A program made the translations under genes and the position numbers. Shown piece by piece: positions 4,461-30,079 of a stretch of 64,000 nt of DNA (its first letter is position 1; every line of letters starts with the position of its first letter). Under the pieces are notes generated by a model that was not told where the DNA came from, ran no database searches, and was given only the letters and a program-made list of their open reading frames with translations. The stretch is from Chondrosia reniformis (taxonomy: Eukaryota > Porifera > Demospongiae > Chondrillida > Chondrillidae): contig OX359189.1 in NCBI GenBank assembly GCA_947172415.1, forward strand, positions 3,548,501 to 3,612,500, given 5' to 3'.

Positions 4461-5066
4461 CCAATTTTTCAGTATTCTGGCTAATTAACTTTTCCTGCAT
4501 GACTTAATCAAATGGTGCTCTCAGTTTATCAAAAAACAGATACACATAGGTAGTACCTATACACTGTATATCGTCGCAGCCCACAACATATATATATTGT
4601 TATCAACTTAAATTTATACTTTAGGCCCTCTCCCAATTTCTGTATTCTTTTGGTATTCATTGTTAATCTTCAATCTTGATGCCCTCTTTGATATTTATTG
4701 TTTCCTATATTTGATCATCCTAGTAATTTCTTGTATATGGACAATTATGTCTATTATTTAATCATCTTTTACTCCCCATGCTAGTCTTTCACCCTCACCC
4801 TACCCTTTCTAATCTCCTGTATTTTTCTTTATTTACTGGATGCCTAGAATAGTAGGCTAAAGGTCTCAAAATAAGATACATGATTTGTCTTTCTTATAAC
4901 GTATCTATACTAATTCATGAAAGAAGAATTTTTAGATAATCACATGGAATATGTCGGTAAATATCAAAATACGTACGTATATATATATATATATATAGCT
5001 ATATGATATCTCCATATGCATTATGATGAAAATACTACACTATATATTTGCTTAATAAAGTTGTTA

Positions 5067-7382
5067 TTATACAAAATTATTCAATTTACTGATAAGGTTC
5101 TTCAAGTGTAATACCACTGTTGGCACAAGCAATGTGGTTATCACCGAGAAGAACCAGGAAAAGTTGATACTGGATCTCAGAGGTAGTCTAATGTCCATGA
5201 GGATTAAGCAATGGATACCCAGCAGAAAGGTAGCTCCACACAAAGCTAGTGTAGTGAGGAATAGCCAGAACAGACATCTCCACAAGCCTTCTCTCCAGTG
5301 AACCACCACTCTGTTGTTTGGCATGAACATTTGATCTAGACTGACAAATGCAGCTAAAAATGCAATGGTACCACAGGCAATGAGCAGAATAGCTGCGAAC
5401 AGGAATCCATTCCGGTATGGGTCTGTCAATACGGCTAATATGGTTGTAGGACCATAGAATCCTAGATATCCAAATATGGAACAAACGGAACTCCAAATTA
5501 CAAATGTTACAATAATTCTATTTGATCTTTTCTTGCTGATTAGCTTAAAGGTTATTATTCGGATGAGGTTTACCAAAGCCGTTGGTACAGGTAGGTGTTG
5601 TGGAATATCAGCTCTTCTTACTAGCACAATGCTAGTGACAAGCATCATCACAATAGCTAGAGATAGAGCAGGTCCAATTGTATGGTCTAAATGGCCTAAC
5701 TTATAACAATTCCAATTGTTCATTATAAATGCCACAGAGAGTGTTGTGCCTTTAGTCAAAAGTAACACATTGAATAATGTAGCAAACAGTGCTAATCCCC
5801 AAATGTAACTGAATGATGATGGAGAAAGAGCCAGTTGTAGAAAATAGTTTCTCATCTTAATTTGTTTTGCAACAATGATAATTGCAATTGGCCAGCATAT
5901 AAATACTCCAATTCTAAAAACAATCACAGTAATGAATATTGGTACCGAGAGGCACTCAAAGTTGCAGAAGATGTTTCTTTCCTTATGAATAACACAACTA
6001 TGTCCCATGGAATTGGAATATTCTGCAGTTTCAACCTTTCTCTTTAAAAGTGCTGCTCTAAGCTACAAATAATGAAAATATCCAAGCAATTAGTTACGTA
6101 TGTATGTATATATGAATAGTATGGAATGTGTGACCAAAAACCTTATATAGAATTCATAATAGTTATAATTATTTTGTCAGACTTACATTTATATAAACAA
6201 GTAAATATTAACATTTACAAAAATGATGTTAGAAGTAGGAATGGCAGTGGTCACTAATACATCTATCGAAACAAAACAGTCAGTGATTATATGATAAGGC
6301 TAATCATGCAGAAGTTGCATGTATACTGAAATTTAAGAAACTTAACCATACTCTTCTGTGTTTGGGCGCACTAACCTGAATAGGAATGGTGTGCCCAAAC
6401 ACAGAAGTGTATGGCTAAGTCACTTAAATTTCAGTATACATGCAATGAGTAGCCTTACCATATCTGGTATTACTTATTTGGGATTGGGGTCGACTTTTAT
6501 AAACAATTTGCCATGAAGCCTACCTTATTTCCTCGATTAAACGTGTATTTTTATCATGCTATTTCGAGATGCGTCATTTATTCAAGTCGAGGAAATATGG
6601 TATATCCCTTCATGTATTATAGTATATATATATATTATGCTTACTGTATTTTGGTTACATTTTCAGTTCACTTTAGATCTTGTATATATGTGATTCATTT
6701 TCGCAGATAACATTATAATACCCATTAAGCTAAGTGTAACTTGCATTTTAAATGAATTTTGATTTCATTTTGTATACATACCTTTATGTATTTATACAAT
6801 TTCATTTTGTACATACATACACCTAGGATGTAGTAATTTATTGACCAAACTCACAAGTAAGGTAACTGATAGTAGAAGTGACTTGGATTTTGGTACTTGA
6901 AATGGCACACTCAAGCATACAAAAGGATAGTCAGTTATAATGGGATTGGTCTTAAAGAAGACTCCTGACATTATCTGTGGAACTAACAGTCCTATTTCAT
7001 TGAGTACAGTCCCTGTTACCAGCATGTTAGTTGTAGATGAATACCACATAGTTCCTAAGACATTCTTTTCTCCATTGAGTTCTATGATGATACCTGCATA
7101 TGGTGTCTGGCTGCATATTGGCTGAAAAACAGGAGTTGCATTTGTGAAGAAAACGAGAGTGGCAAACTGAGGCACTGCATGATTAATAGGATAGAAGGTA
7201 TCCATCAATCTCTGATAGTTTTCTTGATCAGAAATGATAGCTGTGACAATATCATCAGTATAATCACATATTTCTTGATATTGACATGTCCAGTTGTAGA
7301 CTTGCTTTTCACAAACTACACACTGTAATACAGCCATCACAAATAGAATATTCACAGTTTTATTGTCTCTACAAGTAACCAT
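5067..7382 (-). CDS. Seven-pass membrane protein with secreted-type ectodomain, copy 1
   Basis: Two exons: 7382-6855 (176 codons) and 6062-5067 (331 codons plus stop). The donor reads CTT|GTGAGT and the acceptor TTTGTAG|CTTAGAG; both are phase 0, giving 507 residues. Exon 1 has a signal peptide (NILFVMAVLQCVVC), two N-glycosylation sequons (NWT, NAT) and five to six cysteines. Exon 2 has seven hydrophobic segments: residues about 19-43, 54-84, 98-124, 152-183, 196-224, 242-272 and 281-305, numbered from its internal methionine. Basic residues cluster in the loop after segments 1 and 3 and at the C-terminus (AKQIKMR, KLISKKRSNR, HLKNLISKL), which predicts an outside N-terminus and inside C-terminus. 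That is the layout of a G-protein-coupled receptor, but no DRY, NPxxY or other class motif is seen. I do not recognise the family. A role as a surface receptor is inference from topology only. Splicing is predicted, not observed. Confidence 0.72.
6190..6455. mobile_element. Palindromic element in the intron of copy 1 (truncated)
   Basis: Left arm plus start of the right arm of the palindromic family best seen at 8246-8628. The arms meet at the TGTTTGGGCGCAC motif and its complement around 6360-6405. The right arm is cut short near 6455. The element lies inside the only intron of the seven-pass gene. Confidence 0.8.
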
Positions 7383-7719
7383 ATTTAAGACTTATAGATC
7401 TATCAGAATTAGTTACAAATTTCTGAATAGAGTATCACTCTACTGGTGCCAACTGTATTATTCGTTTTCTAACTTACAATATATGCATACTAGAGTATAT
7501 AAGCTGAAACATATTTACTTACATGCATGTATTGTATGTAAATAAATTTCTGTTTATGCACATAGTCTATACATGGACATTTACTTTCTAATCACACTTG
7601 ACTTAATTATATTTTCAGATTCACATACAGTGTACTCTATTTAATCCACAGCAACTGGTTCAGATATATACAGTACATAAACCTGAACTTGCTGAAATTT
7701 AATTCAACTTAGCAGAGAG
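7383..7719. other. Upstream region of copy 1
   Basis: AT-rich sequence immediately 5' of exon 1 of the seven-pass gene, shared with units 2 and 3 and therefore likely to hold its promoter and 5' UTR. Repeated TATATAAGC-type and ATGCATACTAGAG motifs occur; in unit 2 the latter is expanded to three tandem copies at about 18960-19090. No defined site can be named. Confidence 0.4.
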
Positions 7720-8628
7720 TACGGTAAGTAGGAATGGCCGGAAAAAAATGGCCGCCCTATCCAATGTATTAGCAATCAACACCTCATAAATCGCCAACGA
7801 AGCGATTTTCGGTTATATTTGGTTATTTGCAGCGATTAATGCACGCTTTACTAAATGCCAAAACATGTTTCGACGCTCTACACGCTCTATAGCGTTCAAA
7901 AAGCGGCTAACTAGGAATAGACCCATTTCCAAAATTCATTTTTTCTTCTTTTATTGAATAGACTAGCGCTAATATGCGAACTTATGCGGGCACGTACTAG
8001 TTATAAATCGTCATACGTATATCGGAACTAGGGAATAGACAGCCCTAAATCTGAATGCGTTCTACAATAAGCATGTTAATTGTGAAGAGCGAAAATTGTG
8101 GTCTTCTCGGACGCCATTTTTTAATTAAGAGATCATGGTTTTCGGCATATTTCTCTGGTCTAAGACGTTATTTTGAGATCTTCGCCAAGAAAACTTTCAA
8201 ATCAATTTAAAACAAGTAATATTAAGAAGAAAAAAGGGGGAAAACAAGTAAATAAAAAACATTTACAAAAATGATGTTAGAAGTAGGAATGGCAGTATTC
8301 ACTAATACATCTGCAAAAAGTATCGAAACAAGACACTGATTATATGATAAGGCTAATCATACAGAAGTTGCATATATACTGAAATTTAAGTAACCTAACC
8401 ATACACTTCTGTGTTTGGGCGCACTAACCTTAAGTAGGAATGGTGCGTCCAAACACAGAAGTGTATGGTTAGGTTACTTAAATTTCAGTATATATGCAAC
8501 TTCTGTATGATTAGCCTTATCATATAATCAGTGTCTTGTTTCGATACGTTTTGCAGATGTATTAGTGAATACTGCCATTCCTACTTCTAACATCATTTTT
8601 GTAAATATTTTTTATTTACTTGTATATA
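7720..8628. mobile_element. Palindromic transposable element, most complete copy
   Basis: Two parts. 7720-8245 is a unique arm that starts with AGTAGGAATGGCCGG and a run of A. 8246-8628 is a near-perfect inverted repeat of about 180 nt per arm, meeting near 8435. The same arm and/or palindrome recur at 6190-6455, 9925-10325, 13397-13715, 15945-17275 (reversed) and 28065-28850. No coding sequence is in this copy. It behaves like a non-autonomous DNA element (foldback/MITE type); the superfamily is not identified. Confidence 0.8.
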
Positions 8629-8951
8629 AATACATTTTAATAGTTTGCATTACAAGATTTACAGCGTATGTGTACTGTTCTAAATGGGTAGTATTGTAAA
8701 TCTTACTGCTTTTAATATACATATGCATGCATTACCACATTATGAAATGTTTTCATGGACATTGTGAACAGAGAACAGAAATATATATATAATATACTTT
8801 AGTGGCATATCATTCCAAATTAATTATGACAAACGAAAATCTCTTTCTCCATGTACTGGAACATTGAAACAGTGGAATATCATTTTTCAGACTACCACCT
8901 AAATATAAACAGCAAGCTATTAGTTCATTTGCCACAATCACTAAATTTTGT

Positions 8952-9660
8952 ACTGTACCGGACCAGTCACCTGTAACTCCTCTTGCCATCTGTAAGATAA
9001 CTGTACCTGATCTGTAACTCCTCTTGCCATCTGTAAGATAACTGTACCTGATCTGTAACTCCTCTTGCCATCTGCAAGATAACTGTACCTGATCTGTAAC
9101 TCCTCTTGCCATCTGTAAGATAACTGTACCTGACCTGTAACTCCACTTGCCATCTGCAAGATAACTGTACCTGACCTGTAACTCCTCTTGCCATCTGCAA
9201 GATAACTGTACCTGACCTGTAACTCCACTTGCCATCTGTAAGATAACTGTACCTGATCTGTAACTCCTCTTGCCATCTGCAAGATAACTGTACCTGATCT
9301 GTAACTCCTCTTGCCATCTGTAAGATAACTGTACCTGACCTGTAACTCCTCTTGCCATCTGTAAGATAACTGTACCTGACCTGTAACTCCACTTACCATC
9401 TGTAAGATAACTGTACCTGACCTGTAACTCCACTTGCCATCTGCAAGATAACTGTACCTGACCTGTAACTCCACTTGCCATCTGTAAGATAACTGTACCT
9501 GACCTGTAACTCCACTTACCATCTGTAAGATAACTGTACCTGACCTGTAACTCCACTTGCCATCTGTAAGATAACTGTACCTGACCTGTAACTCCTCTTG
9601 CCATCTGTAAGATAACTGTACCTGACCTGTAACTCTTCTTGCCATCTGCAAGATACTGTA
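8952..9660. repeat. 41-bp minisatellite, 17 units
   Basis: Seventeen tandem units of 41 bp, each centred on CTTGCCATCTG. Units differ at a few fixed positions: CCTCTTG, CCACTTG or CCACTTA, ATCTG or ACCTG, and TGTAAG or TGCAAG. Since 41 is not a multiple of three and no unit has a stop on the minus strand, all three minus frames stay open across the array. These frames show a 41-residue period and are not taken as genes. The equivalent place in unit 2 (19513-19570) holds one unit. Confidence 0.95.
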
Positions 9661-9924
9661 CATACTGCAATGTGTATAGTGATAGGTTAAACCTAATGTT
9701 ACTACTGTACTTTTCTTCTGATACACAAGTACATAGTACTCCGATCCCAAACACTAAATGCTTGTGATTTCCTTATCAGCAAATAAGGGGTACAACGAAA
9801 GTGTGGCTGAGCACAAACATAGGAATTTAATATCTGATGCTGCTCTTAGAGTTTTGATGGAAATATTATTTAACTCTCTTAGATTTTGCCCCAGTTGTAT
9901 GCCATACTAATGAGTTCTATATAT

Positions 9925-10325
9925 ATCAGAGAGTACGGCAGTACTCTCTAAGTAGGGTATTATCAATTAACACCTCATAAATCAACAACGATGGGATTTT
10001 CGGTTGCATTCGAGTGTTTGCATACTTTTCTAAACTCCAAAACAGGTTTCGATGCTCTACAATCTTCGCAAAGTGGTTAACCTGAATTAGGCCAAATTCT
10101 GAAATTCCTCATTTTTTCTTTTTTCAAATGAGCTAGCGCAAACATGCGAACTTACGCAGGTACATACAAATACTAAATCGTTATGAATGTTTCCGAACTA
10201 GGGAATAGGCTACCCCGGATTTCAACACGCTACATCCGAAGCGTGTTCCTTTTAAAAGTTCCAAATTTAGGGCCTCTTCGAACGCCATTTTTTAATTAAG
10301 TTTCAAATTCTCTGTATATAAAAGG
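9925..10325. mobile_element. Arm of the palindromic element family
   Basis: Starts with GAGAGTACGGCAGTACTCT and runs to the CGCCATTTTTTAATTAAG motif. It matches 7720-8245 and is closest to 28065-28500. The palindromic half does not follow directly; unrelated sequence and then an R2-like LINE are found to the right. Confidence 0.75.
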
Positions 10326-10526
10326 GGGGAACACTTCATTATTTGTATGAGTGATACAAAAGTCATGCTTAGGGCACAGGGGAAAAATATGTTTTTTTAG
10401 AGTGAAAAAAAACATATACCTGGCAAGGCAGTTATATAGGAGTCATAAGGTAAATATAACAGAATATATATAATAAAAAATGTGACTGAACAGTAAATAC
10501 GTACATAATCATGTTCAGTTTGGACA

Positions 10527-11232
10527 CTAGGTTAGTGCTACATGGGCCATGAATATAGTTTTGGAGCTCTGGATTGCTAATTTGGCAAATTTCATCAATG
10601 TATTCCTCCTATCTGTTGTGGTGGAGCTGGGAGCGAATTTCTTCAACCGATGGATGGTGTCAGGGTTGTGGTGACCTAGGCTTCCAATTTCAATTGTTAT
10701 CAGACAGGGTAGTAACCCAGTTTCTAAGGGACCTGTCATCAGAGCTTGGAAATTTTCTTTGGTTTCTTTATTTGTGATGGCGGGCCCCAGCAAGGTTCTC
10801 TGTTGAGTTCCATGGAACTGTTAACTCCACTAGGTGACCTTTGTCTTCATAGAAGAGTGTGAGGTCAGGTCTGGTAGTTGTGAAGAGGAGACTTGGGGGG
10901 ATGGTTGATGGTGGGCTATCGGTTGCTCTGAGACCCTCAAGATCACAGTAGATGCTGGCATCTGGGTTGGAAGCTTTGACAAATTGGTAAAGGAGGTGGA
11001 GAATTTTGTCATGTCTCCAGGTGTACCGCCCCTGAGTAAGAGCTGTGGGGCAGCAATTTAGGACATGTTTGATGTTGCAGTGTGGTACGTGACACAGTGG
11101 GCATTTGGATATGACTTTATAACTCCATCTGCGCAGGTTAGATGGACGGTTGGGAGGCAGTCTATGCTGGCTCTGGCCATAAATGAAAGTTGGCCTGATG
11201 GGAGTCCATTGAGCTAGGATTCTCTTCCACAC
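10527..11232 (-). pseudogene. LINE C-terminal zinc finger and endonuclease-like fragment
   Basis: Two overlapping frames (11232-10768 and 10793-10527). The first carries KCPLC...H...C, then GRYTWRHDKILHLL, then RPDLTLFYEDKGHLVELTVP. The second carries ETGLLPCLITIEIGSLGHHN, which continues the R2-type tail in another frame. This indicates a frameshift near 10780. Confidence 0.7.
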
Positions 11233-11966
11233 TGGATTGGCCTCTTCTTAAGCAATGGTTTGTAGAAGGCTGTTCTAGACCTTCAGAGAGTGGAGGTGTT
11301 GTTCCCAGGTTTCTGAGTGCAGAGTTGTAAGGGCAGTTTTTGCAAGCTTCCTTTGTCTGGCTTGGGAAACCTGTGTTTTGTGGCTGAGTGCTTCTTTGGC
11401 TAGGTTGTAGGCTTCAATACAGTTAGGGGGGAACATAGGAAGGGCAAGTTGATGGATGTCTTAGATGTTCTTGTCTGTAGAAAGTGCTGTTGTAGTGAGG
11501 TAGCTCAGTTGAGCTTCTTCTGAATAGTTTGGTAGGAACTTAATTGATGTTGAGGCTATGTTTATGGAAGAGCACTGCTGGAGTAGAACATCTAGGCAGG
11601 TTTAACCATTGCTTGAGAGACTTGGGTATGGGCCTTAATTTGGAAATGGATATTGGAAAGTGTGCAGGCAGGTAGTGGGTTCACAGCTAGTGAGAACTGG
11701 AGTGAAGGTAGCAGATAATTCTTCAAGTTTTATATTCTCCTCTTAGGTGACAGGTGTTGATCTTTCTTAGTTGTGATGCAATGGACTCTCTCAGTTGGGT
11801 GGCTACCAGATTTCTGTGTCTGGATTCTGAGGTGGAAATAGTTTTGCCAAGGAAGGTGACAGGGGAAGATGCTATGTTCTTAGTTTTCCCTGCAGAAAGC
11901 GTGAACTGTTTAAGAGGGAGTAGTTTGGAACAATCGTGGCAATATGAAATACATTTGGATGGGTTG

Positions 11967-12180
11967 AGGTGTAAGTCCAGTTCTGAACTATCTTAGTAAG
12001 GATTGACTGATGTTCTATGATATTGGAGGAGATGACTGATAGGTCATCACCATATCCTTTTACTCAGTGAGGTGTAAGTCCAGTTCTGAACAGTGTTCAT
12101 CTATCTTAGTAAGGATTGACTGATTTTCTATGATGTTGGAGGAGATGACTGATAGGTCATCAGCATATCCTTTTATTTGG
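11967..12180 (-). pseudogene. RT catalytic segment, tandemly duplicated
   Basis: Read on the minus strand, 12154-12170 encodes the YADD active-site motif in GYADDLSVISSNI. A near copy about 113 bp further on (12041-12057) reads GYGDDLSVISSNI. The two 105-115 bp blocks are direct repeats, so the catalytic core of this LINE copy was duplicated after it decayed or at insertion. The first aspartate pair is kept in both. Confidence 0.75.
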
Positions 12181-12221: not shown

Positions 12222-13022
12222 TCACAGTTTGGTGGAGAAGGTATAGATTGGTGGGGTTTTCGTAGAGGGGAGAAATGTTTTGCTGTTTCCCTTGCATGAG
12301 GACCATTTGAGTTTGTGAAGATTAATTATCTCGTAGGTTCCATTTGGGTACTGGACTTTGGTCTCTCCGGATATTGTATGTTCACTCACTTTGCATCTGT
12401 ACCAGCCTGGTGGTTCATCAGATTCTTCTTCATTCCACTGAAGATAGATGGAGGACGAGCAAGGTGGTAAGCCCTCAGATGTAGGTATTTGGAGCTTGGG
12501 GGTATATCCTCTGCATGGTAAGGCATTGGCCAATTGGATTATGGGTTGGAAGCAGAGGAGGAAGATGGTGGGTGATAGGGTGTCACCTTGGAATACTCCC
12601 TGTTTTACAGAGAATAGATCTGTATTCCAAGTCCTGCTATGGGTAAATGCTTTCAGCTGGCTATATGCATTTGTTACATATGAAGAGACTGCATTTGGGA
12701 CCTTGACATATTTTAGCATATCATTGATAAGCTGGTGGGATATCGAGCCGAAGGCATTGCTAAGGTCAAGAAAGGTGATATTTAGAGCGAGTCAAAGTGA
12801 CTTGGCATTTTCTAGGATTGCAGTGGTGGCAAGAATATGCTCCATGGTTCCACTAATACCAGTGAGGAAGCCTTTCTGGGTGGTATAGTAGACATGAAAT
12901 GATTGGCTATAGTTTTCAAGGCGGTTGGCAAGTTTAAACAATTTGCCAATTGTGGACATGAGTGCTATGGGTCGGTAGTTGGCTGGGTTGTGTTCTGGGC
13001 CTTTCTTATGTAGGAGTATCAT
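12222..13022 (-). pseudogene. LINE reverse-transcriptase fragment
   Basis: Two overlapping broken frames. The first has NPANYRPIALMSTIGKLF, the usual RT palm entry motif. The second has VKQGVFQGDTLSPTIFLLCF, the Q-G-D-x-L-S-P motif that precedes the catalytic site. The frames are offset near 12720-12790, so at least one frameshift separates them. Confidence 0.8.
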
Positions 13023-13396: not shown

Positions 13397-13715
13397 CAGA
13401 TGCCATTTTTTTAATTTAGAGCTCTCTATTATGTCGTCTATTCTGCTACTTTATTTCGAGTCTTCGCCAAGAAAACTTTTAAAACAAGTAAGAACAAGAA
13501 AAAGGGGCAACACAAGTTAAATAAAAACATTCAAAAATGAAGTTAAACGTAGGGATGGCACTATAACAGTGATTGGCACATCTAGAAAAAGTATAACGAA
13601 GCAAGAAAGTGATCATATGGTAAGGCTAACATTGCAGAAGTGGCATACTGCAACTTAACTATACACATCACTTCTATGTTTGGGCGCATCGATCCATACT
13701 TCTAGTATATCCATG
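13397..13715. mobile_element. Palindromic element, left half only
   Basis: Begins with GCCATTTTTTTAA, continues through TCTTCGCCAAGAAAACTTTT and AGTGATCATATGGTAAGGC, and reaches TGTTTGGGCGCATCGATCC. Closest to the copy at 28500-28850. The right arm of the palindrome is almost absent; a Penelope-like fragment follows directly. Confidence 0.7.
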
Positions 13716-14811: not shown

Positions 14812-17800
14812 TTATTGTACAAAATTATTCAATTTATTGATAAGGTTCTTTAAGTGTAATACCACTGTTGGCACAAGCAATGTGGTTATCACCGAGAAGA
14901 ACCAGGAAAAGTTGATACTGGATCTCAGAGGTAGTCTAATGTCCATGAGGATTAAGCAATGGATACCCAGCAGAAAGGTAGCTCCACACAAAGCTAGTGT
15001 AGTGAGGAATAGCCAGAATATACATTTCCATAAGCCTTCTCTCCAGTGAACCACCACTCTGTTGTTTGGCATGAACATTTGATCTAGACTGACAAATGCA
15101 GCTAAAAATGCAATGGTACCACAGGCAATGAGCAGAATAGCTGCGAACAGGAATCCATTCCGGTATGGGTCTGTCAATACGGCTAATATGGTTGTAGGAC
15201 CATAAAATCCTAGATATCCAAATATGGAACAAACGGAACTCCAAATTACAAATGTTACAATAATTCTATTTGATCTTTTCTTGCTGATTAGCTTAAAGGT
15301 TATTATTCGGATGAGGTTTACCAAAGCCGTTGGTACAGGTAGGTGTTGTGGAATATCAGCTCTTCTTACTAGCACAATGCTAGTGACAAGCATCATCACA
15401 ATAGCTAGAGATAGAGCAGGTCCAATTGTATGGTCTAAATGGCCTAACTTATAACAATTCCAGTTGTTCATTATAAATGCCACAGAGAGTGTTGTGCCTT
15501 TAGTCAAAAGTAACACATTGAATAATGTAGCAAACAGTGCTAATCCCCAAATGTAACTGAATGATGATGGAGAAAGAGCCAGTTGTAGAAAATAGTTCCT
15601 CATCTTAATTTGTTTTGCAACAATGATAATTGCAATTGGCCAGCATATAAATACTCCAATTCTAAAAACAATCACAGTAATGAATATTGGTACCGAGAGG
15701 CACTCAAAGTTGCAGAAGATGTTTCTTTCCTTATGAATAACACAACTATGTCCCATGGAATTGGAATATTCTGCAGTTTCAACCTTTCTCTTTAAAAGTG
15801 CTGCTCTAAGCTACAAATAATGAAAATATCCAAGCAATTAGTTACGTATGTATGTATATATGAATAGTATGGAATGTGTGACCAAAAACCTTATATAGAA
15901 TTCATAATAGTTATAATTATTTTGTCAGACTTACATTTATATAAACAAGTAAATATTAACATTTACAAAAATGATGTTAGAAGTAGGAATGGCAGTGGTC
16001 ACTAATACATCTATCGAAACAAAACAGTCAGTGATTATATGATAAGGCTAATAATGCAGAAGTTGCATGTATACTGAAATTTAAGAAACTTAACCATACT
16101 CTTCTGTGTTTGGGCGCACTAACCTGAAGTAGGAATGGTGCGCCCAAACACAGAAGTGTATGGTTAAGGTACTTAAATTTCAGTATATATACATGCAACT
16201 TCTGTATGATAAGCCTTATCATATATAATATAATATTAATCACTCTCTTGTTTCAATACTTTTTGCAGATGTATTAGTGAACACTGCTATTCCTACTTCT
16301 AACATCATTTTTGTAAATGTTTTTTATTTACTTGTATTCCCCTTTATTTCCTCTTAATATTACTTGTTTTATATTGATTTGAAAGTTTTCTTAGACAAGA
16401 GAAATATGCCGAATATTTGAGCCATGATCACTTAATTAAAAAATTTAATGGCGTCCGAGAAGACCACAATTTCGCTTTTTACAATTAGCATGCTTCTTGT
16501 AGAGCGCATTCAGATTTAGGGCTGTCTATTCCCTAGTTGGGAAATATTTATGACAATTTATAACTTGTACGTGCCCGCAGAAGTTCACATATTAGCTTTA
16601 GTCTATTCAATAAAAGAAGAAGTATATAGAAGAAAATATGAATTTTGGAAATGGGCCTATTCCTGGTTAGCCACTTTTTGAACGCTATACAGCGTGTAGA
16701 GCGTCAAAACATGTTTTGGCATTTAGAAAAGCGTGCAGTAATGGCTGCAAATAACCGAATATAACCAAAAATCGCTTTGTTGTTGATTTACTAGGTGTTG
16801 ATTGATAATACTGTATAGCGGGAATTTTTCACATGGACTTTAATTTCGCGTTTTTTGTGAGTTAACCCCAACTTTCTTCCGCCATTTTTATATATACTGG
16901 GAAGAAATTTTTGCGAGTTTCACCAATGATAACTCCATCTTTCAGCACAGTTACTGTGAAGGCATCCTTAGCGTTACCTAATTCACTTTTGCAGAGAAGT
17001 TGTTAGCTGATTGTGGCAGCTCAAACGTTTTTGTACGCATGATAACCTCTTACCATCGCTTTCATGCTGAAGCGCACATGTTCTGCACCAACTGCCATCC
17101 GTCCTGATTAAGTACACATGGAGCACGCAAAAATTTAAAATCATGAAAATAAGAACTACAAACGTTTATTCTGAGGCTTTTGCAAAGATTCACGAAAGTA
17201 TCTGTCTGCGAAAAGTTACCACTATATGGTAGATTGGATAGGGCGGCCATTTTTCCCCCAGCCATTCCACAGGTGCAACCTCAGCAAAGCCTTGGTTGAC
17301 ACTGAATGGTATAGAGCTAACAGAAGCAGACAAGGCAGACATCATTAAAGGAACAGAGTTAAATGACAAGCATATGAATTTTGCCCAGGAGATCATTAGA
17401 AAGCAATTCAAGAACCTAACAGGAATGCAGTCTACTTTAGCACTCATCCCATCCCATCGTTCATTCCAGGTCGCTCATTACTCCTGCTCATCCATTTTTG
17501 CAAATCATCCACTCTAAAGGCAACCACTAGATTGTTGCTTCAACCATTGCAAGCTTACCTACAGTAGAGATCTTTGACTCATTGTACTCATCTATTGATG
17601 ACATGACAACCAGGCTACTCGTGAATCTGTTTGAAATGAATGTTACTGTGGAGATGGGACCCTGCCCTCAGCAAGATGGTACTGCAGATTGTGGTGTCTT
17701 CACTATTACTATATGCACAGTCCTGGCCCATGGCAGCCAACCCGGCCAGTATGATCAAAAACAGATGAGAGGTCACCTTAGAAGGAGTAGCACATCATCC

Positions 17801-18856
17801 ACGTCTAATATGTCAAATGTACGTAGTCTTCTTCTTCTTGTTATGCTGTTCACCTCCCATCGTTGTCTTGCTGTCGTGCTGTCGTTGGTGATTTATGAGA
17901 TGTTGCTTGCTAATACATTGAAAAGGGAGGCCATTTTTTCCGGCCAATCCTACTTAAACGACGACGCCAATCCCAAATAAATAATACCACCAGTATTTTC
18001 ATCATTCTCTTTCGAGATGCATCATTTACTCAAGGGGAGTACTTAATCGAGGAAATATGGTATATCCCTTCATGTAATATAGTATATAACAACTTGCTTA
18101 TATATTATGCTTACTGTATTTTTGTTACATTTTCAGTTCACTTTAGATCTTGTATATATGTGATTCGTTTTCGCAGATAACATTATAATACCCATTAAGC
18201 TAAGTGTAACTTGGATTTTAAATGAATTTTAATTTCATTTTGTATACATACCTTTATGTATTTATATATACAATTTCGTTTTGTACATACATACACCTAG
18301 GATGTAGCAATTTATTGACTAAACTCACAAGTAAGGTAACTGATAGTAGAAGTGACTTGGATTGTGGTACTTGAAATGGCACAGTCAAGCATACAAAAGG
18401 GTAGTCAGTTATAATGGGATTGGTCTTAAAGAAGACTCCTGAAATTATCTGTGGAACAAACAGTCCTATTTCATTGAGTACAGTCCCTGTTGCCAGCATG
18501 TTAGTTGTAGATGAATACCACATAGTTCCTAAGACATTCTCTTCTCCATTGAGTTCTGTGATGATACCTGCATATGGTGTCTGGCTGCATATTGGCTGAA
18601 AAACAGGAGTTGCATTTGTGAAGAAAACGAGAGTGGCAAACTGAGGCACTGCATGGTTAATAGGATAGAAGGCATCCATCAATCTCTGATAGTTTTCTTG
18701 ATCAGAAATGATAGCTGTGACAATATCATCAGTATAATCACATATTTCTTGATATTGACATGTCCAGTTGTAGACTTGCTTTTCACAAACTACACACTGT
18801 AATACAGCCATCAAAAATAGAATATTCTCAGTTTTATTGTCTCTACAAGTAACCAT
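14812..18856 (-). CDS. Seven-pass membrane protein with secreted-type ectodomain, copy 2
   Basis: Exons 18856-18329 (176 codons) and 15810-14812 (332 codons plus stop), joined at CTT|GTGAGT and TTTGTAG|CTTAGAG in phase 0, giving 508 residues. The signal peptide, NWT and NAT sequons and seven membrane segments are as in copy 1. The membrane exon differs from copy 1 at only three residues (WR to WK, CL to CI, IS to IN) plus one extra C-terminal Gln where copy 1 has an earlier stop. The ectodomain exon is instead nearly identical to copy 3 over about 130 residues, so this copy is a mosaic. The intron carries transposon sequence on the opposite strand. Both frames are intact, so the gene may be functional. 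The family is unrecognised. Confidence 0.72.
15945..17275 (-). mobile_element. Palindromic element, reversed, in intron of copy 2
   Basis: 15945-16330 is the palindrome (arms meet near 16125). 16331-16812 is the unique arm reversed relative to the copy at 7720. 17228-17275 holds its outer end (GGGCGGCCATTTTT). The arm is split by a smaller insertion at about 16814-17226, whose ends TATAGCGGGAATTTTTC and GAAAAGTTACCACTATA are inverted repeats with three mismatches. That nested MITE contains no gene. Confidence 0.75.
17282..17975 (+). pseudogene. Ulp1/C48 cysteine protease fragment of a transposon
   Basis: Plus-strand reading shows TVEIFDSLYSS around 17558-17590 (the Asp region of a C48 peptidase) and PQQDGTADCGVFTITICT at about 17665-17720, with the oxyanion Gln and the catalytic Cys, then YDQKQMRGHL. 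This is the pattern of Ulp1-like proteases carried by several eukaryotic DNA transposons. Stops separate the N-terminal stretch (17296-17517) from this part and no His motif is readable, so it is broken. The fragment is bracketed by GGCGGCCATTTTTCC (17253-17267) and GGCCATTTTTTCCGGCC (17929-17945), the end motif of the palindromic family. It sits in the intron of copy 2 on the opposite strand. Confidence 0.7.
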
Positions 18857-22331: not shown

Positions 22332-23350
22332 CTAGCTCCATCCTGACAAAACCATGTCTGCCACCTTTGCTAAGATAAGGTCTCTTGCTGTCAATGTTTT
22401 TATTTGTTTTACTGTAACGGGACCATACTGAAACTTAAATATTCCATAATAAGTCAAAACTTCTGATGACAACAAAGCTTGCTGTGCTGCTGTGAAGGAT
22501 CTTTCTTGCCTCGATCCCCAAATCCATTCCTCTGATTTCTGCAATAGCTGATAGAGTGGTGCTAACAAACTGGCTAAGTGTGGTAGAAACTAGCCATAAT
22601 AATTGATCATTCCCAGGAACGAACGTAACTGAGAAATATTTTCAGGCCTGGGTGCATCCACAAGTGCTCTGACTTTGTCATCTGCAGATGAGTCATGTGT
22701 GGGATTCAAACCCTCTGCAGATATGGTATGCCCTAGATATTCAACTGATGGCAAAAAGAAAGAACATTTTTCTTTCTTGACACGCATCCCCGATTTCTCC
22801 AGTCTTGACAAAACCTCATGCAAATTTTGCAAGTGCTCTGTTTCGGTTCTCCCTGTCACCAATATGTCATCTAAGTAGACGGAGACATGAGGAACCCCTT
22901 ACAGAATGGTTTCTATTGTCCGTTGGAATATAGCAGGGGCTGATGCTATTCCGAATGGTAACCTGTTGCATTGGAATAGCCTCTTGCGTGTGTTGATCAC
23001 TACCACCTTCTGCGACACTTCTGCCAACGGAATTTGTTGATAGGCATGGGCAAGGTCTATCTTAGCAATTACTTCTCGCCGGCTAAAGTGGCGAAAATGT
23101 CCTCAATTTTTGGTAGTGGGTATGTGTCTAACTTTGTGACACAATTCAGAGTGACTTTGAAATCACCACATATTCTCACGGACCCATCCCTTTTTACTAC
23201 TGGCACTATTGGTGTGGCCCACTGGGAAAATTCTACTAGCGTGATAATGCCTTTCTTCTGTAGTCTCCCCAATTCCTGCTCGATCTTCCCCCTCAAGGCG
23301 TATGGTACTGTCCTTGCTTTACAGAAAATAGGGGCTGCCTCAGGGTCCAC
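22332..23350 (-). pseudogene. Gypsy reverse transcriptase and RNase H remnant
   Basis: 23350-23069 reads through the RT fingers (GRLQKKGIITLVEFSQWATP, then DGSVRICGDFKVTLN). A gap of broken frames follows, where the YxDD box would be; plus 22861-22890 reads back as VYLDDILV with a shift. 22862-22590 has VEYLGHTISAEGLNP and QLRSFLGMINYYG, the RT thumb. 22568-22332 carries a decayed tether/RNase H start (WGSRQERSFTAAQQALLSSE). Confidence 0.82.
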
Positions 23351-23353
23351 ATG

Positions 23354-23788
23354 TTATCGTGCTTGGAACTCCCTTGCGTTCCCTACATCTTCTCCAAAGA
23401 TAGCCTTATGTTCCTCTAATACATCCTGGAGGTGCAGGGGGCAATAAATGCTGAAGATGGCCGGCCAGTTGAATTTGAATTTTGCTAATATGTCCCTTCC
23501 TAACAATGTAGGGCCATTACCAGCCACCACCAGAATACTGACTGGTTCCTTTTGTCCTTCATATTCTGCTTGTACTTGGATGTACCTTAGTACCTTCAGC
23601 TGCTCCCCTGTATATGTCCTAAGCTTTACCTTGGATGGGTGTACTCTTGGTCCATTTCCCTTCCAAAGTTGTTGATAGGTTTCTGCACTCATTACTGAGG
23701 AAGCTGCCCCAGTGTCTATTTCATTTGGCACCTCATCCTGATTAACCTTGATGATAACACTAATTGGTGCCGCTTTGGATGCTGACAT
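23354..23788 (-). pseudogene. Gypsy aspartic protease
   Basis: A 144-codon open stretch. EIDTGAASSVMSAETY holds the catalytic D-T-G and NGPTLLGRDILAKF the later family motif. This is the best-preserved domain of the element. Its start methionine is arbitrary because it is part of a polyprotein. Confidence 0.88.
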
Positions 23789-23949
23789 AGCAAATAGGTC
23801 ATAAGTATATATAGGTTGTTCCTCCTCCTCCTCTGACCCCTCCTTAATTACATTTGTTTTGCCACCATATGATTTCTTTGTCAGTGATGACTCTTTTCCT
23901 TTTTTGAATTCCTCAGGTGAGCAATGTCCATCACTCCAGGAAGCTCTAG

Positions 23950-24693
23950 CTATATGTCCAGTCTTTCCACAGCTATGGCATTCAGCTGTTTTAAAACGGC
24001 ATGCACTTGCAGTATGCTGCTTATACTCTTACATCTGTAACATCGGTTAGAGAACTCATCCCTGTTTCCCTTCCTATGGCTAGCATTTATCGCCAGAACA
24101 TGTTCCTGCGATCCTCCTAGCTCCTGCTTTCCAAGAGCAGCTTGTTTCTTTGCTTGCAGTTCTTTTGCGTCCTGTTCCGCTAACTCTGATGCCTGGGTTA
24201 GTCCAAATGCTCTTTCAAAGGTGAGTTCTGGCTCTGCCAAGATTCGGCGTTACAGTCTTGTGTCCTTTAGGCCGCACACCAGTCGATCCCGAAGCATATC
24301 TTCCAGTGTGTTACCAAATTTGCAATGTTGCGTTAATTGTTGTAATTCAGCTACGTAGTAGGCCACGTTTTCTCCTTCATTCTGGAACCGGGAATGAAAG
24401 TTGCTCCACAATTACTGACGGTCTCGGACAGAAGTGCTCTTGGACTCTTGCCACTAACTCCTTGAACTTGAATTCTGTCGATTTTTGTGGCACTACCAAA
24501 TTACGTATCAATTGATACGTGTTTGGCCCACAAATGCTAAGCAAAATTGCTCTCTGCTTGGCATCTTCCTTGACGTCGTTTGCCATGAAATATTGCACCA
24601 TCTTTCCGCGTATGATGGCCATTGCTCTCTGCTTTGATCAAATTCTCCTACTGTTCTGTGGGTTGTCATGCTAAAATCCTGCCCCGTCACCAC
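23950..24693 (-). pseudogene. Gypsy gag remnant
   Basis: Three frames in succession. The first two overlap around QRAILLSICGPNTYQLIRNL, a capsid-like motif of Gypsy gag proteins. The third has AFGLTQASELAEQDAKELQ followed by an N-R-C-Y-R-C zinc-knuckle start, which then runs off frame. The gag reading frame therefore carries at least two frameshifts. Confidence 0.8.
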
Positions 24694-24695
24694 TT

Positions 24696-24921
24696 TGTGA
24701 TATCCAGACTAACCAAGCGCAACACTGGCGTGGAACGTTTAATCATGATTGCAACAATTACAGTTGATACACACTAAAACTCAAAAAACTGATTAATGCA
24801 CAATGCAATTATACATATACTACAAGTGTTTTATACTAAAAATAGTCACATACACGAACTACCTAAAATGACATATATAATACAACTTAGCTATAGGTAA
24901 GTCTACATAAAAGTTACTACA
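24696..24921 (-). repeat. Gypsy LTR (5' LTR with respect to the element)
   Basis: 226 bp, partner of 20938-21162. It should contain the element's promoter, but no core motif can be named with confidence. Unit 3 sequence (CTAGTAATTTC) resumes immediately to the right. Confidence 0.92.
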
Positions 24922-24958
24922 CTAGTAATTTCTTGTATATGGACAATCATGTCTATTA

Positions 24959-26421
24959 ACTTGAAAATACTCGAGTGGCTAGGTTCCATAATAACTTTGC
25001 TTTACTGAAACTACTCTAGCCGAACACTGAAAAAAATCAAATCAAACTTTTTGACCCCAATCCAGAGGTCCTCATCAGTGATAATAAGTACAACCAATTG
25101 GCAAGGTGGCTTATATATTACTGTGTGGCAGCCACTTATTTATCATACCAGGGAGGTTGCTACTTCAAATTTTTGGTACAGTTATGGGGTCACCTGTGTC
25201 TGTCACGGTGGCTAACCTTGTTATGGAAGACATTGAAGAGCGAGCGCTTGCATGCATCTTGCTCACACTACCCTCTGTTTGGAAGAGATATGTTAATGAC
25301 ATGCTAACAGCTCTCCTATGGGATTACATCAAACAGTTCCATCAGCACATCAACGCCATTGAGTCCTCCATCGAGTTCACGATCAAGCAGGAGGTTAATG
25401 GCTCCATCCCATTCCTGGACACCAGGATAATCTGACATGATGATGGTTCCTTGTCTACTGTAGTGTTCCAAAAAGAGACTCACACGGACTGCCACCTGGA
25501 CGTTTTCTCACATCATCCATTGCCCAAAAAACAGCAGTGGTCCGCAACTTACTAGCCCGGGCAGATAGGATATGCACTATGTCATAGACAAGGATAAAGA
25601 GAGGGAGCACATCATTAGAGCACTACAGAACAATGGTCAATGGCCCATGGACAATTGTGGCCGTAATCGGCACCCTACATCTCTCCTTCCCTCCAAAAAA
25701 GAGCAAGATCCACCCAAGATATCGGTGACCCTCTTGTACATCCGACATCTGTCAGAGTCCATTAGATGGATCCTCATCCCTTTAGGAGTCCGCACCTGCT
25801 TCCGTCTATACCAGACTCTAAAACAGATCCTTGTACACCTGAAGGACCACATGCATCCTTCCTAAACAACACTCTGGTGTGGTTTACAGTATCCCTTGTA
25901 GAACGTGTACAAAGGTATACATTAGCCAGACAGGCCGTACTTTGGAAACCCGAGCACAAAAGGGTGCTGCGCTGGTTTCAGGAGAGAGATCAATCTATCT
26001 GCAATGGCTCAGCATGTAGTGGTCGAGGGGCACGACAGACTGGATGGAAGCTACAGTGGTAGATGGCCACCCCCATTTCCACCAGAGATGTGCTTTGGAG
26101 ACTTGGCACATCCAGCTCAAGACAATACAATGAACAGAGATGCGGGCCCTTTGCCCTCGGTGTATGACCCTCTCATTCAATGGGACAAAAGTGAATTGAC
26201 AATTATGACAATAGCCTTTTCTATTTTACTATGCTATTGTATCACCTATATTTTTATTGATACACCCTCACACACTTTATTGATTTCTGCCCCATACTAT
26301 ATAAGCCACCTTGCCAATTGGTTGTACTTATTATCACTAATGAGAACCTCTGGATTGGGGTCGAAACATTTGATTTGATTTTTTCAGTGTTTGGCTAGAG
26401 TAGTTTCAGTAAAGCTAAGTT
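24959..26421 (+). mobile_element. Penelope-like element with inverted terminal repeats
   Basis: A 14-bp target duplication (AATCATGTCTATTA) flanks it exactly at 24945-24958 and 26422-26435. Terminal repeats of about 110 bp at 24990-25118 and 26300-26421 are inverted, sharing GAAACTACTCTAGCC and the GACCCCAATCCAGAGG core. The left one has about 30 extra bases at its outer end. Inside are a partial RT and a GIY-YIG nuclease remnant on the plus strand, both broken. Confidence 0.88.
25106..26045 (+). pseudogene. Penelope-like RT and GIY-YIG fragments
   Basis: RT part at about 25180-25435: MGSPVSVTVANLVMEDIEE, WKRYVNDM (the Y-V-D-D site changed to Y-V-N-D) and EFTIKQEVNGSIPFLDTRI. The rest is shifted. 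The GIY-YIG part at about 25880-26045 shows CRTCTKVYI and QTGRTLETRAQKG-like readings in alternating frames, then WLSMxxVVEGHDR. Frameshifts, stops and the lost catalytic Asp show it is inactive. Confidence 0.8.
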
Positions 26422-26739
26422 AATCATGTCTATTATTTTAATCATCTTTTACTCCCCATGCTAATCTGTCACTCCCATCCTACTCTTTTTAATCTCCCGT
26501 ATTTTTCTTTATTAACTGGATGCCTAGAATAGTAGGCTAAAGGTCTCAAAATAAGATACATGATTTGTCTTTCTTATAACATATTATAACATATACTAAT
26601 TCATGAAAGAAGAATGTTTAGATAATCACATGCATGGAACAAATTGTATGTCTGTAAATATCAAAATACGTATATAGCTATATGATATCTGCAAACACAT
26701 TATGTAAATACTACACTATAAATTTGCTTAATGAAGCAG

Positions 26740-29604
26740 TTATTGTACAAAATTATTCAATTTACTGATAAGGTTCTTTAAGTGTAATACCACTGTTGGC
26801 ACGAGCAATGTAGTTATCACCGAGAAGAACCAGGAAAAGTTGATACTGGATCTCAGAGGTAGTCTAATGTCCATGAGGATTAAGCAATGGATACCCAGCA
26901 GAAAGGTAGCTCCACATAAAGCTAGTGTAGCAAGGAATAGCCAGAACAGACATCTCCATAAGCCTTCTCTCCAGTGAACCGCCACACTGTTGTTTATCAT
27001 GAATATTTGATCTAGACTGACAAATGCAGCTAAAAATGCAATGGTACTGCAGGCAATGAGCAGAATAGCTGCAAACACGAACCCATTCCGGTATGGGTCT
27101 GTCAATACAGCTAATATGGTTATAGGACCATAGTATCCTAGATATCCAAATATGGAACAAACGGAACTCCAAATTACAAATGTTACAATAATTCTGTTTG
27201 ATCTTTTCTTGCTGATTAGCTTAAAGGTAATTATTCGGATGAGGTTTACCAAAGCCGTTGGTACAGGTAGGTGTTGTGGAATATCAGCTCTTTTTACTAA
27301 CACAATGCTAGTGACAAGCGTCATCACAATAGCAAGAGATAGAGCAAGTCCAAATGTATGGTCTAAACGGCCTAACATATAACAATTCCAGTTGTTCATT
27401 ATAACTGCCACTGAGAGTGTTGCGCTTTTAGTCAAAACGAACACATTGAACAATGCAGCAAACAATGCTAATCCCCAAATGTAACTAAACGAAGATGGAG
27501 AAAGAGCCAGTTGTAGAAAATAGTTCCTCATCTTAATTTGGTTTGCAACAATGATAATTGCAATTGGCCAGCATATAAATACTCCAATTCTAAAAACAAT
27601 CACAGTAATGAATATTGGTACTGAGAGACACTCAAAGTTGCAGAAGATGTTTCTTTCCTTATGAATAACACAACTATATCCCATGGAATCAGAATATTCT
27701 GCAGTTTCAACCTTTCTCTTTAGAAGTGCTGCTCTAAGCTACAAACAATGAAAAAATCCAAGCAATTAGTTACGTATGTATGTATGGTATGGAACGCAGT
27801 TTGTAACCAAAAACCTTATAATGAAATTACTTTGTCACCACATATATAAGTTCTTTAAAGGCTTACGTTTATATACCGTATATGTCCGTGTAGAAGCCGG
27901 GCTCAAAACTCCCTGGAAAGAAATAGAGGCCCGGGCCTCTATTCAGACATATACAGTAGATACATAAATATAATACACACCCATAAATAAGGTGATATGA
28001 TATAACATCTAGATATTCTTATTGTATTTTTTAGTCACATTTTCAATTCACTTTAGATCTCTTATCAGAGAGTACGGCAGTACTCTAAGTAGGGATGGCC
28101 GAAAAAAACATGGCCGCCCTATCCAATGTATTATCAATTAACACCTCATAAATCAACGATAGGATTTTCGGTTGTATACCAGTGTTTGCAGTCCTTTTGC
28201 ATATTTTTCTAAACGCCAAAACATGTTTCAATGCTCTACAACCTTGGCAAAGTGGTTAAACCGAAGTAGGCCAAATTCTGAAATTCCTCATTTTTGTTAT
28301 TTTTTCAAATGAGCTAGCGCTAGCATGCAAACTTACGCAGGTACACACAAGTACTAAATCGTCATTATTGTTTCCGAACTAGAGAATAGGCTACCCTAGA
28401 TTTCAACGCGCTCTATCCGAAGCGTGTTACTTTTGAAGGTGCTTATTTTAGGGCCTTTCTGAACGCAATTTTTTAATTAACTTTCAAATTCTCTGTATAA
28501 AGTAAATAAAACATTTAAAAAATGAAATGAGAAGTAGGGATGGCAGTCCTTGCATACCTATTACATCTAGAAAAAGTAACGAAACAAGAAAGTGATCATA
28601 TGGTAAGGCTAACATTGCAGAAGTGGCATACTGAAACTTAACTATACACATCACTTCTATGTTTGGGCGCATCATGGATATACTAGAAGTAGGGATCGAT
28701 GCGCCCAAACATAGAAGTGATGTATATATTTAAGTTCATATGATCACTTTCTTGTTTCGTTACTTTTTCTAGATGTGCCAATCACTATTATAGTGCCATC
28801 CCTACTTTAAACTTCATTTTTGAATGTTTTTATTTAACTTTATATATATATATGTGATTCATTATTAATATCCATTAAGTTGCATTTAAAATGAAATTTA
28901 AAGTTTCATTTAGTATGTGTTTAATTCAATATTCTGTTTTAATACATTTCAATTTTCTTTATTATTCAGACATACAATACGTACACTGAATATATTCCTT
29001 TCAAGAAATGTGTTTTGTACATACATACACCTAGGATATAGTAATTATTGACCAAACTCACAAGTAAGGTAACTGAATGTAGAATTGACTCAGATTGTGG
29101 TACTTGAAATCGCAGAGTCAAGCATACAAAAGGGTAGTCAGTTATAATGGGATTGGTCTTAAAGAAGACTCCTGAAATTATCTGTGGAACAAACAGTCCT
29201 ATTTCATTGAGTACAGTCCCTGTTGCCAGCATGTTAGTTGTAGATGAATACCACATAGTTCCTAAGACATTCTCTTCTCCATTGAGTTCTGTGATGATAC
29301 CTGCATATGGTGTCTGGCTGCATATTGGCTGAAAAACAGGAGTTGCATTTGTGAAGAAAACGAGAGTGGCAAACTGAGGCACTGCATGGTTAATAGGATA
29401 GAAGGCATCCATCAATCTCTGATAGTTTTCTTGATCAGAAATGATAGCTGTGACAATATCATCAGTATAATCACATATTTCTTGATATTGACATGTCCAG
29501 TTGTAGTCTTGCTTTTCACAAACTACACACTGTAATACAGCCATCAAAAATAGATTATTGATGATCACAGTTTTTTTTACTATTTTGTCTCTGCAAGTAA
29601 CCAT
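26740..29604 (-). CDS. Seven-pass membrane protein with secreted-type ectodomain, copy 3
   Basis: Exons 29604-29062 (181 codons) and 27738-26740 (332 codons plus stop), joined at the same donor (CTT|GTGAGT) and acceptor (TTTGTAG|CTTAGAG) as the other copies, phase 0, giving 513 residues. The signal peptide region has a small insertion (KIVKKTVIINN) relative to copies 1 and 2. The membrane exon has about 25 substitutions against copy 1, mostly conservative and mostly in membrane segments or outer loops. Both exons are free of stops, so selection may still act. The intron contains a full palindromic element. Family unrecognised; receptor role inferred from topology alone. Confidence 0.72.
27870..27965. 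repeat. Short inverted-repeat element
   Basis: About 90 bp with complementary ends: ACCGTATATGTCCGTGTAGA on the left against TATTCAGACATATACAGT on the right, and a CCGGGC / GCCCGGG centre. It is absent from the same intron in copies 1 and 2. It looks like a very small MITE; no TSD was confirmed. Confidence 0.5.
28065..28850. mobile_element. Palindromic element, complete copy in intron of copy 3
   Basis: Arm at 28065-28500, starting GAGAGTACGGCAGTACTCT and including ATGGCCGCCC, followed by a palindrome at 28501-28850 whose arms meet near 28680. It is a diverged subfamily of the element at 7720-8628 and closer to the pieces at 9925 and 13397. It fills much of the intron between exons 27738 and 29062. 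Confidence 0.8.
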
Positions 29605-30079
29605 ATTAAGTATATAGATCTATCAGAACAAGTTACAACTTCTGAATAGAGTATATATATATATCACTTTACTGGCATCGGCTGTATTATTCGCTTTCTA
29701 ACTTAGAGTACATGCATACTAGACTATATAAGCAGATACAGATTTATGTATTATAATATAAATAAATTTCTACTTATATAGTCTATACATGGACATTTCT
29801 AAATACACACATTATATTTTCAGTATCAATCTTATAACACCACATACACATAGTGTACACTCCATTTAATCCACAGCAATTGGTTCAGGCATTCGTATAT
29901 CCTACATTCACCTGAACTTGCAGAAGTTTAATTGAACTTGAATATTTGCATTACAAGATTTACTGTATTAATTTCCAGAATTATGGTATGTGCACTGTTC
30001 AAAATGGGTGGTATATATTCTAAATCCTACTGCTTTTAATATGAACATGCTTGTATTACCATAAGCATATATTATGAAA

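What the first reader, a model, noticed from the sequence alone, without database searches (positions are those of the whole stretch)
4500..30075. Triplicated gene for an unrecognised seven-pass membrane protein with a signal peptide and glycosylated ectodomain
In all three units the ectodomain exon and the membrane exon have matching phase-0 splice sites (CTT|GTGAGT and TTTGTAG|CTTAGAG), so they most likely form one gene of 507-513 codons. Signal peptide, sequons, seven hydrophobic segments and positive-inside loops give a receptor-like topology without any known receptor motif. All six exons are intact despite heavy transposon load. This is the best candidate for an undescribed, lineage-specific receptor family in the window.
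Basis: partly seen in the sequence, partly recalled or inferred. Interest (0 to 1): 0.75.

Follow-up and report, generated by a model that had tools for sequence, protein, structure and literature searches.

The report
Unrecognised seven-pass membrane protein family in sponge
Three neighbouring sponge genes each encode a predicted cell-surface protein with a sugar-decorated outer domain and seven membrane passes; they belong to an apparently undescribed family of about thirty gene copies that looks like a receptor family but has no proven function.

Summary
All six exons are open and each pair joins in phase 0 into 507, 508 and 513 residues. The genome matches Chondrosia reniformis (kidney sponge) by size.

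The triplet is a small part of a larger family. In this genome 32 loci, the three included, carry both exons in order on one strand, over nine chromosomes; 27 of 32 have both phase-0 splice sites. A very divergent 33rd locus keeps the plan. Identity falls to chance outside the splice sites and the exons diverge together (r 0.97). Eight cysteines on the predicted outer face are conserved.

No Pfam, NCBIfam, PDB-sequence or Foldseek match was found. AlphaFold gives seven long helices at moderate confidence; the ectodomain model failed.

Best reading: an orphan, tandemly expanded, N-out seven-pass receptor-like family outside the recognised GPCR families. Topology is predicted; receptor function and G-protein coupling are not shown. 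Lineage restriction is untested: no other sponge genome could be searched.

The parts
6855..7382 (-). Unit 1 exon A: signal peptide (by eye) and ectodomain (176 codons), donor CTT|GTGAGT
6063..6854 (-). Unit 1 intron (792 bp), phase 0; holds a foldback repeat near 6351-6410
   Evidence: foldback seen by eye
5067..6062 (-). Unit 1 exon B: three-cysteine linker and seven membrane segments (331 codons plus stop)
18329..18856 (-). Unit 2 exon A (176 codons)
15811..18328 (-). Unit 2 intron (2518 bp), longer than in units 1 and 3
14812..15810 (-). Unit 2 exon B (332 codons plus stop)
29062..29604 (-). Unit 3 exon A (181 codons)
27739..29061 (-). Unit 3 intron (1323 bp)
26740..27738 (-). Unit 3 exon B (332 codons plus stop)

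Best explanation
Each unit is one two-exon gene for a surface protein of about 510 residues. A signal peptide sends the N-terminus out of the cell. A glycosylated ectodomain of about 150 residues with four invariant cysteines is followed by a three-cysteine linker and seven membrane helices; the C-tail is short and basic, inside the cell. The likely mechanism is that of an orphan seven-pass receptor: the ectodomain, together with the strongly conserved second and third extracellular loops, senses a ligand and passes the change through helices 5-7 to the cytosolic loops. The family has spread by tandem duplication in the way chemosensory or immune-type receptor sets do. Shown by computation: gene structure, family size, conserved cysteines, conserved splice phase, purifying selection on the membrane exon in most comparisons. 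Predicted: N-out seven-pass topology. Inferred: disulfides, ligand sensing. Not shown: G-protein coupling, expression, ligand.
For: Joined frames and splice sites. 32 loci with both exons in order on one strand; 27 of 32 with both phase-0 sites. Identity falls to chance outside the splice sites in 36 pairs of 9 representatives. Exon A and B identities correlate, r = 0.972, 25 members. Eight cysteines conserved in predicted extracellular positions: exon A 17 of 17 at each of four; exon B 22/23, 23/24, 23/24 and 24/25. Loop charges fit N-out with seven passes better than eight passes. Seven long helices in the best AlphaFold model of exon B, pLDDT 69.8, pTM 0.65. dN/dS of exon B 0.19-0.35 among the three units and 0.18-0.35 in five comparisons between subfamilies. 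N81 and T83 (an N-x-T sequon) invariant in 17 of 17. Clusters on several chromosomes. A divergent member with the same intron phase and plan.
Against: No match to a GPCR profile and none to five of the genome's own rhodopsin-like receptors (hhalign probability 0.8%). Foldseek finds nothing in PDB or the viral library (best E 1.6 and 0.18). Three of the five AlphaFold models of exon B are poor (pLDDT 42-45). TM3 is the least conserved membrane segment (0.19 mean pairwise identity among 10 representatives) and extracellular loops 2 and 3 the most conserved parts (0.58, 0.69), unlike the class A pattern that I recall. No DRY or NPxxY motif in the alignments. The divergent member lacks the four exon B cysteines. 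One pair of members (L067, L071) has dN/dS near 0.85 in both exons, so constraint is not uniform. The ectodomain model is useless (pLDDT 35.5). No expression data were seen.
Confidence: 0.55

Rival explanations
1. A non-receptor seven-pass surface or trafficking protein, for example a GOST-like cargo or trafficking protein, channel subunit or adhesion protein, whose ectodomain binds a partner rather than a signal.
For: Conservation peaks at extracellular loops 2 and 3 and helix 6, not at TM3; no GPCR motif or profile match. GOST proteins also have an ectodomain directly before seven helices (PMC12716839, passages).
Against: No GOLD or GOST family among the Pfam matches, though the ectodomain fold stays unknown; repeated tandem expansion to 33 loci is more usual for sensing or immune gene sets than for housekeeping trafficking (inference).
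Confidence: 0.3
2. A highly diverged branch of a recognised GPCR class (rhodopsin-like, adhesion, glutamate, frizzled) that profile searches can no longer see.
For: Predicted N-out seven-pass layout, cysteine at the ECL1/TM3 end (24 of 25), cysteine-containing linker before TM1 as recalled for frizzled/smoothened; seven long helices in the best AlphaFold model.
Against: No Pfam 7tm profile at E up to 10 for the window units or up to 1 for any of 25 members; hhalign against five own rhodopsin-like receptors 0.8%; no Foldseek match at moderate model confidence, which does not exclude the fold.
Confidence: 0.12
3. Exon A and exon B are two separate genes: a small secreted protein and a membrane protein.
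For: The ENA-derived database entries hold them as separate single-exon ORFs.
Against: Paired at 32 loci with the same order and strand, phase-0 splice sites at both ends in 27 of 32, identity drop at these sites, correlated divergence; no conserved Met at the start of exon B.
Confidence: 0.03

Closest known systems
GPCRs of the Pfam GPCR_A clan (rhodopsin, adhesion, glutamate, frizzled), as catalogued for Amphimedon (PMC4302439, passages)
   Same: Predicted N-out seven-pass layout and an extracellular domain before TM1.
   Different: No profile match, no DRY/NPxxY, no ECL2 cysteine in the window units, no known ectodomain.
GOST and Hi-GOLD seven-pass proteins (PMC12716839, passages)
   Same: Ectodomain directly before seven helices; Hi-GOLD is of unknown function and reported in sponges.
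   Different: No GOLD match by Pfam; the ectodomain fold could not be modelled, so this stays open.
Insect OR/GR-like seven-pass channels (features recalled; survey PMC7746228 seen only in a search listing)
   Same: Seven passes, tandemly expanded; recalled to be most conserved towards TM7, as here at TM6/ECL3.
   Different: Recalled to be N-in without signal peptide; here a signal peptide and an extracellular ectodomain are predicted; no Pfam match.

Membership tests
GPCR (Pfam GPCR_A clan) | Match to a 7tm profile | tested here: not met
   No 7tm family listed for 4 window exons at E up to 10, 25 exon B members at E up to 1, or the divergent member at E up to 10
GPCR (Pfam GPCR_A clan) | Seven membrane helices with N-terminus outside | tested here: met
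   By prediction only: hydropathy and loop charge, seven long helices in the best AlphaFold model, signal peptide by eye
GPCR (Pfam GPCR_A clan) | Class A DRY (TM3) and NPxxY (TM7) motifs (recalled) | tested here: not met
   Alignments: TM3 end reads IVLVRRADIP in unit 1, TM7 reads FFSVITTLLVPTVVL
GPCR (Pfam GPCR_A clan) | TM3-ECL2 disulfide (recalled) | tested here: not met
   ECL1/TM3 cysteine in 24 of 25, but no ECL2 cysteine column reaches 60% and the window units have none there; part of the paralogs have a cysteine at the outer end of TM4
GPCR (Pfam GPCR_A clan) | GPCR bundle fold | tested here: inconclusive
   Model of exon B moderate, no Foldseek match
GPCR (Pfam GPCR_A clan) | Couples to a G protein | not testable with these tools
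   Needs a cell assay
GOST / Hi-GOLD | GOLD domain in the ectodomain | tested here: inconclusive
   No Pfam match, but the ectodomain model failed
Adhesion GPCR | GPS/GAIN region and 7tm_2 profile | tested here: not met
   No such Pfam match
Frizzled / smoothened | Fz cysteine-rich domain and Frizzled 7TM profile | tested here: not met
   No such Pfam match; conserved extracellular cysteines are four in exon A, three in the linker, one in loop 1
Insect OR/GR-like | N-in topology, 7tm_6/7tm_7 profile (recalled) | tested here: not met
   No such Pfam match; N-out predicted from signal peptide and loop charge
RSF, GPRch1-3 (PMC12716839) | Sequence similarity of the 7TM domain to these families | not tested
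   Their sequences were not at hand

The most novel reading that the evidence does not exclude
A class of animal seven-pass surface receptors that is independent of the GPCR families, built from a new ectodomain fold and a new membrane fold whose sensing surface is formed by the ectodomain and extracellular loops 2 and 3, and expanded by tandem duplication as a sponge chemosensory or microbe-sensing repertoire.
Probability: 0.22. Interest if true: 0.8.

Novelty: new variant of a known kind. Interest (0 to 1): 0.52.

Why it matters
The Amphimedon GPCR survey started from Pfam GPCR_A profiles (PMC4302439, methods passage), so a family of 33 loci outside those profiles would be missed by such a search. 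How nerveless animals sense their surroundings and their dense microbial communities is an open question, and a sizeable orphan surface-protein family in a sponge described as of high-microbial-abundance type (PMC12181767, abstract) gives a concrete gene set to express, localise and test. Five paper searches, read as listings only (25 of 59, 10 of 10, 8 of 8, 15 of 41 and 5 of 5 papers shown), listed no paper whose title or abstract start describes this family; that is no proof of absence.

Tried and rejected

An eighth pass at exon B 159-175 was considered: it would turn the loop charges against positive-inside, and the AlphaFold model shows only a short helix, 161-170, there.

A mosaic origin of unit 2 was considered from protein identities and dropped, because synonymous distances do not support it. 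A lower synonymous rate in exon A than in exon B was checked at fourfold-degenerate sites and was not borne out: 616 of 1453 against 858 of 2117 identical, A above B in 25 of 45 pairs of 10 representatives.

Relatives elsewhere: viral contigs and genome contigs gave none; these hold viruses and prokaryotes, so little was to be expected. Whether the 5.8-billion protein set holds other sponges was not tested, so species restriction is not claimed. dN/dS of exon A among the window units (0.78-1.42) rests on 2 to 4.5 synonymous changes and is not read as positive selection.

Rows left out: alignment A1 holds 18 of the 24 full-length loci and 7 database proteins, A2 holds 17 of those 24 (near-duplicates, and L072 in A2, left out); the structure alignments hold the three window copies with 8 (exon B) and 13 of 14 (exon A) database proteins. 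The output was cut, so splice counts come.

Full report
Where the window lies. The window is G000:C1:3548501-3612500 of a genome of 117,379,552 bases in 15 contigs. The contig lengths printed for C1-C9 and C12 (10.41, 10.29, 9.42, 8.95, 8.80, 8.73, 8.46, 8.13, 7.70 and 7.52 Mb) agree with the chromosome table of Chondrosia reniformis odChoReni1.1, 117.37 Mb in 14 chromosomes plus mitochondrion, and C7 (8,459,200) equals the printed scaffold N50 (PMC12181767, passages). Small differences remain: C4 is 8.954 against 8.96 Mb, and a figure legend gives 10,413,042 for the longest scaffold against 10,409,357 for C1. I take the species as identified by this match.

The observation. Three units on the minus strand each hold an ectodomain exon and, 792, 2518 or 1323 bp further on, a membrane exon. 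The donor CTT|GTGAGT and the acceptor TTTGTAG|CTTAGAG are in phase 0 in all three; the joined frames are 507, 508 and 513 residues.

It is a family. Searches of the window's own genome with exon B and with exon A each gave 40 matches from 41 scored candidates; the tool says such counts are lower bounds. I fetched 35 places. With the three window units, 32 loci hold both exons on one strand in the order A, B. In 30 of 32 a phase-0 donor, and in 27 of 32 both sites, were found near the expected place; 23 of those 30 donors are GT[AG]AG, the seven others, all of one C3 subfamily, GTGGGT. Since the script looks for such sites, conservation is the better evidence: in 36 pairs of 9 subfamily representatives identity is 0.48 before the donor, 0.52 in the 15 bases from the donor on, then 0.25-0.28; it is 0.26-0.34 in the intron before the acceptor, 0.53 in its last 15 bases and 0.45-0.49 in the exon. 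Pairwise identities of exon A and exon B over 25 members correlate at r = 0.972 (0 of 2000 permutations as high). By my reading, 24 of the 32 loci are full length; the others carry stops, frame breaks, truncation or no clear acceptor. The 32 loci lie on C1-C8 and C12 (C7 with one disrupted copy only), many in clusters: C3 2.13-2.18 and 2.30-2.33 Mb, C12 5.85-5.91 Mb, C8 4.21-4.27 Mb.

A deep branch. A 33rd locus, C1:3217151-3218870 on the minus strand, matches unit 1 exon A at 26% but has the same plan: a 181-codon exon with a phase-0 donor ATG|GTAAGA and a 328-codon membrane exon behind CTGCAG| in phase 0. Profile comparison gives probability 97.4 for exon A and 94.5 for exon B. Its exon A finds 33 other places in the genome (best E 5.9e-12); its exon B finds only itself and one marginal place, unit 3 (E 0.0455). 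On this branch the membrane exon has diverged more than the ectodomain.

Topology and cysteines. Exon B shows seven strong hydropathy peaks and a weaker charged one at 159-175; loop charges fit N-out with seven passes better than eight, though the extracellular linker is +1.3. No dedicated topology predictor was run. Eight cysteines fall outside the cell in this layout: exon A 33, 39, 90, 156 (17 of 17 each), exon B 23, 33, 37 in the linker (22 of 23, 23 of 24, 23 of 24) and 119 in loop 1 (24 of 25). Three less conserved cysteine columns lie in or at the outer end of TM6 (19, 17 and 20 of 25). The deep-branch member keeps three of the four exon A cysteines (alignment) and lacks all four of exon B (alignment); the joint loss would fit their pairing with each other, but this is one case and an inference. 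N81 and T83, an N-x-T sequon, are invariant (17 of 17). Paralogs have plain signal peptides, for example MNIWFLLLKGIALSILTGPLGVYG.

Selection and history. Among the window units dN/dS of exon B is 0.19, 0.27 and 0.35; in exon B units 1 and 2 differ at dS 0.024 and unit 3 from either at 0.11-0.12, so unit 3 probably split off first. Exon A gives 1.42, 1.10 and 0.78 on very few synonymous changes. In five comparisons between subfamilies exon B gives 0.18-0.35 and exon A 0.25-0.43; within the C3 and C12 groups exon B gives 0.23-0.60 (15 pairs) and 0.19-0.42 (15 pairs). The pair L067/L071 stands out at 0.85-0.86 in both exons, a sign of weak constraint there (all).

Where conservation sits. Among ten representatives mean pairwise identity is highest in extracellular loop 3 (0.69), loop 2 (0.58) and helix 6 (0.54) and lowest in the tail (0.14) and helix 3 (0.19). 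Invariant in all 25 rows of A1 are, among others, P215, Y216 and F220 around loop 2 and H284, D290, L293, P294, I299, F301 and W303 around loop 3. A shared outer surface is kept while the rest drifts. This is unlike what I recall of class A GPCRs and is the strongest hint that the membrane part may work differently.

What it is not, by the tests made. No Pfam family came near significance for the window exons, 25 exon B and 17 exon A members (best E 0.013) or the deep branch; none in NCBIfam; no PDB sequence relative (none at E up to 10; best E 0.61, 0.31 and 0.44). hhalign against five rhodopsin-like receptors of the same genome gives probability 0.8. AlphaFold of exon B from 11 sequences: best pLDDT 69.8, pTM 0.65, two of five models alike in score and three poor, seven long helices. 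Foldseek finds nothing with E below 0.1 in PDB or the viral library; most VIA-align rows rest on a two-helix stretch, 214-291. Exon A: pLDDT 35.5, unusable.

Relatives. Protein searches returned 22 proteins in all, all single exons from ENA contigs, several of chromosome length. Against 25 members of this genome, 19 of 22 match at 92-100%; P0021 is identical to exon A of the disrupted C7 locus. P0002 (81% to unit 1) and P0004 (67% to the C3 7.84 Mb copy; 90% over 70 residues to the C7 locus) have no close full-length counterpart among the loci compared. The set looks like another assembly of the species, and the two exceptions hint at copy-number or intactness differences. Viral and prokaryote collections gave none.

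Mechanism. I commit to an orphan seven-pass receptor-like protein: ectodomain and outer loops sense something outside, helices pass it on. Shown are gene structure, family and constraint; topology is predicted; sensing is inferred from layout, outer-face conservation and tandem expansion; coupling is unknown. The main rival is a seven-pass surface or trafficking protein with a non-signalling job.

Literature. Krishnan et al. 2014 (PMC4302439, passages) collected Amphimedon GPCRs through Pfam GPCR_A profiles, which do not detect this family. The 2025 eLife survey (PMC12716839, passages) names new families such as Hi-GOLD and RSF; membership in RSF or the GPRch families was not tested. Five paper searches, read as listings, showed no description of this family.

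Noticed in passing
window 8969-9661: Tandem array of a 41-bp unit, 16.9 copies, 96% matches; because 41 is not a multiple of three it gives long repetitive ORFs in three minus-strand frames.
   Followed up: partly
window 1575-3488 (-): Uninterrupted 637-residue frame with all three thiamine-pyrophosphate enzyme domains (2-hydroxyacyl-CoA lyase/ILVBL type by recall), apparently a single-exon gene.
   Followed up: partly
window 43335-44714 (-): Open 459-residue frame matching NTP_transf_7 (TENT5/FAM46-type nucleotidyltransferase by recall), E 3.4e-105.
   Followed up: partly
window 10771-11247, 12225-12791, 23357-24028 (all -): Retroelement remnants between the units: RVT_1 over its cut-off; zf-RVT and gag-type aspartyl protease under theirs. 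Described only.
   Followed up: no
window about 6351-6410, 16101-16160, 28651-28720; also 13512-13690: All three introns hold a foldback repeat with arms like CTTCTGTGTTTGGGCGCA ... TGCGCCCAAACACAGAAG, seen by eye; one search shows a further similar stretch outside the introns at 13512-13690. Possibly a MITE-like element; whether it came before the duplications is open.
   Followed up: no
window 33130-33202 (+), 59060-59132 (-): Two tRNA genes above Rfam's gathering score.
   Followed up: no
L079 (G000:C7) and proteins P0004, P0002: A disrupted family copy on C7 resembles a longer protein from another contig (P0004, 90% over 70 residues), and P0002 has no close copy among the 25 members compared: a hint of copy-number or intactness polymorphism.
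   Followed up: partly
G000:C11 near 4846562 and 4855772: Two further partial exon A relatives seen only with the deep-branch query (33-34% over about 80 residues, one with a stop); possible extra members of the wider family.
   Followed up: no
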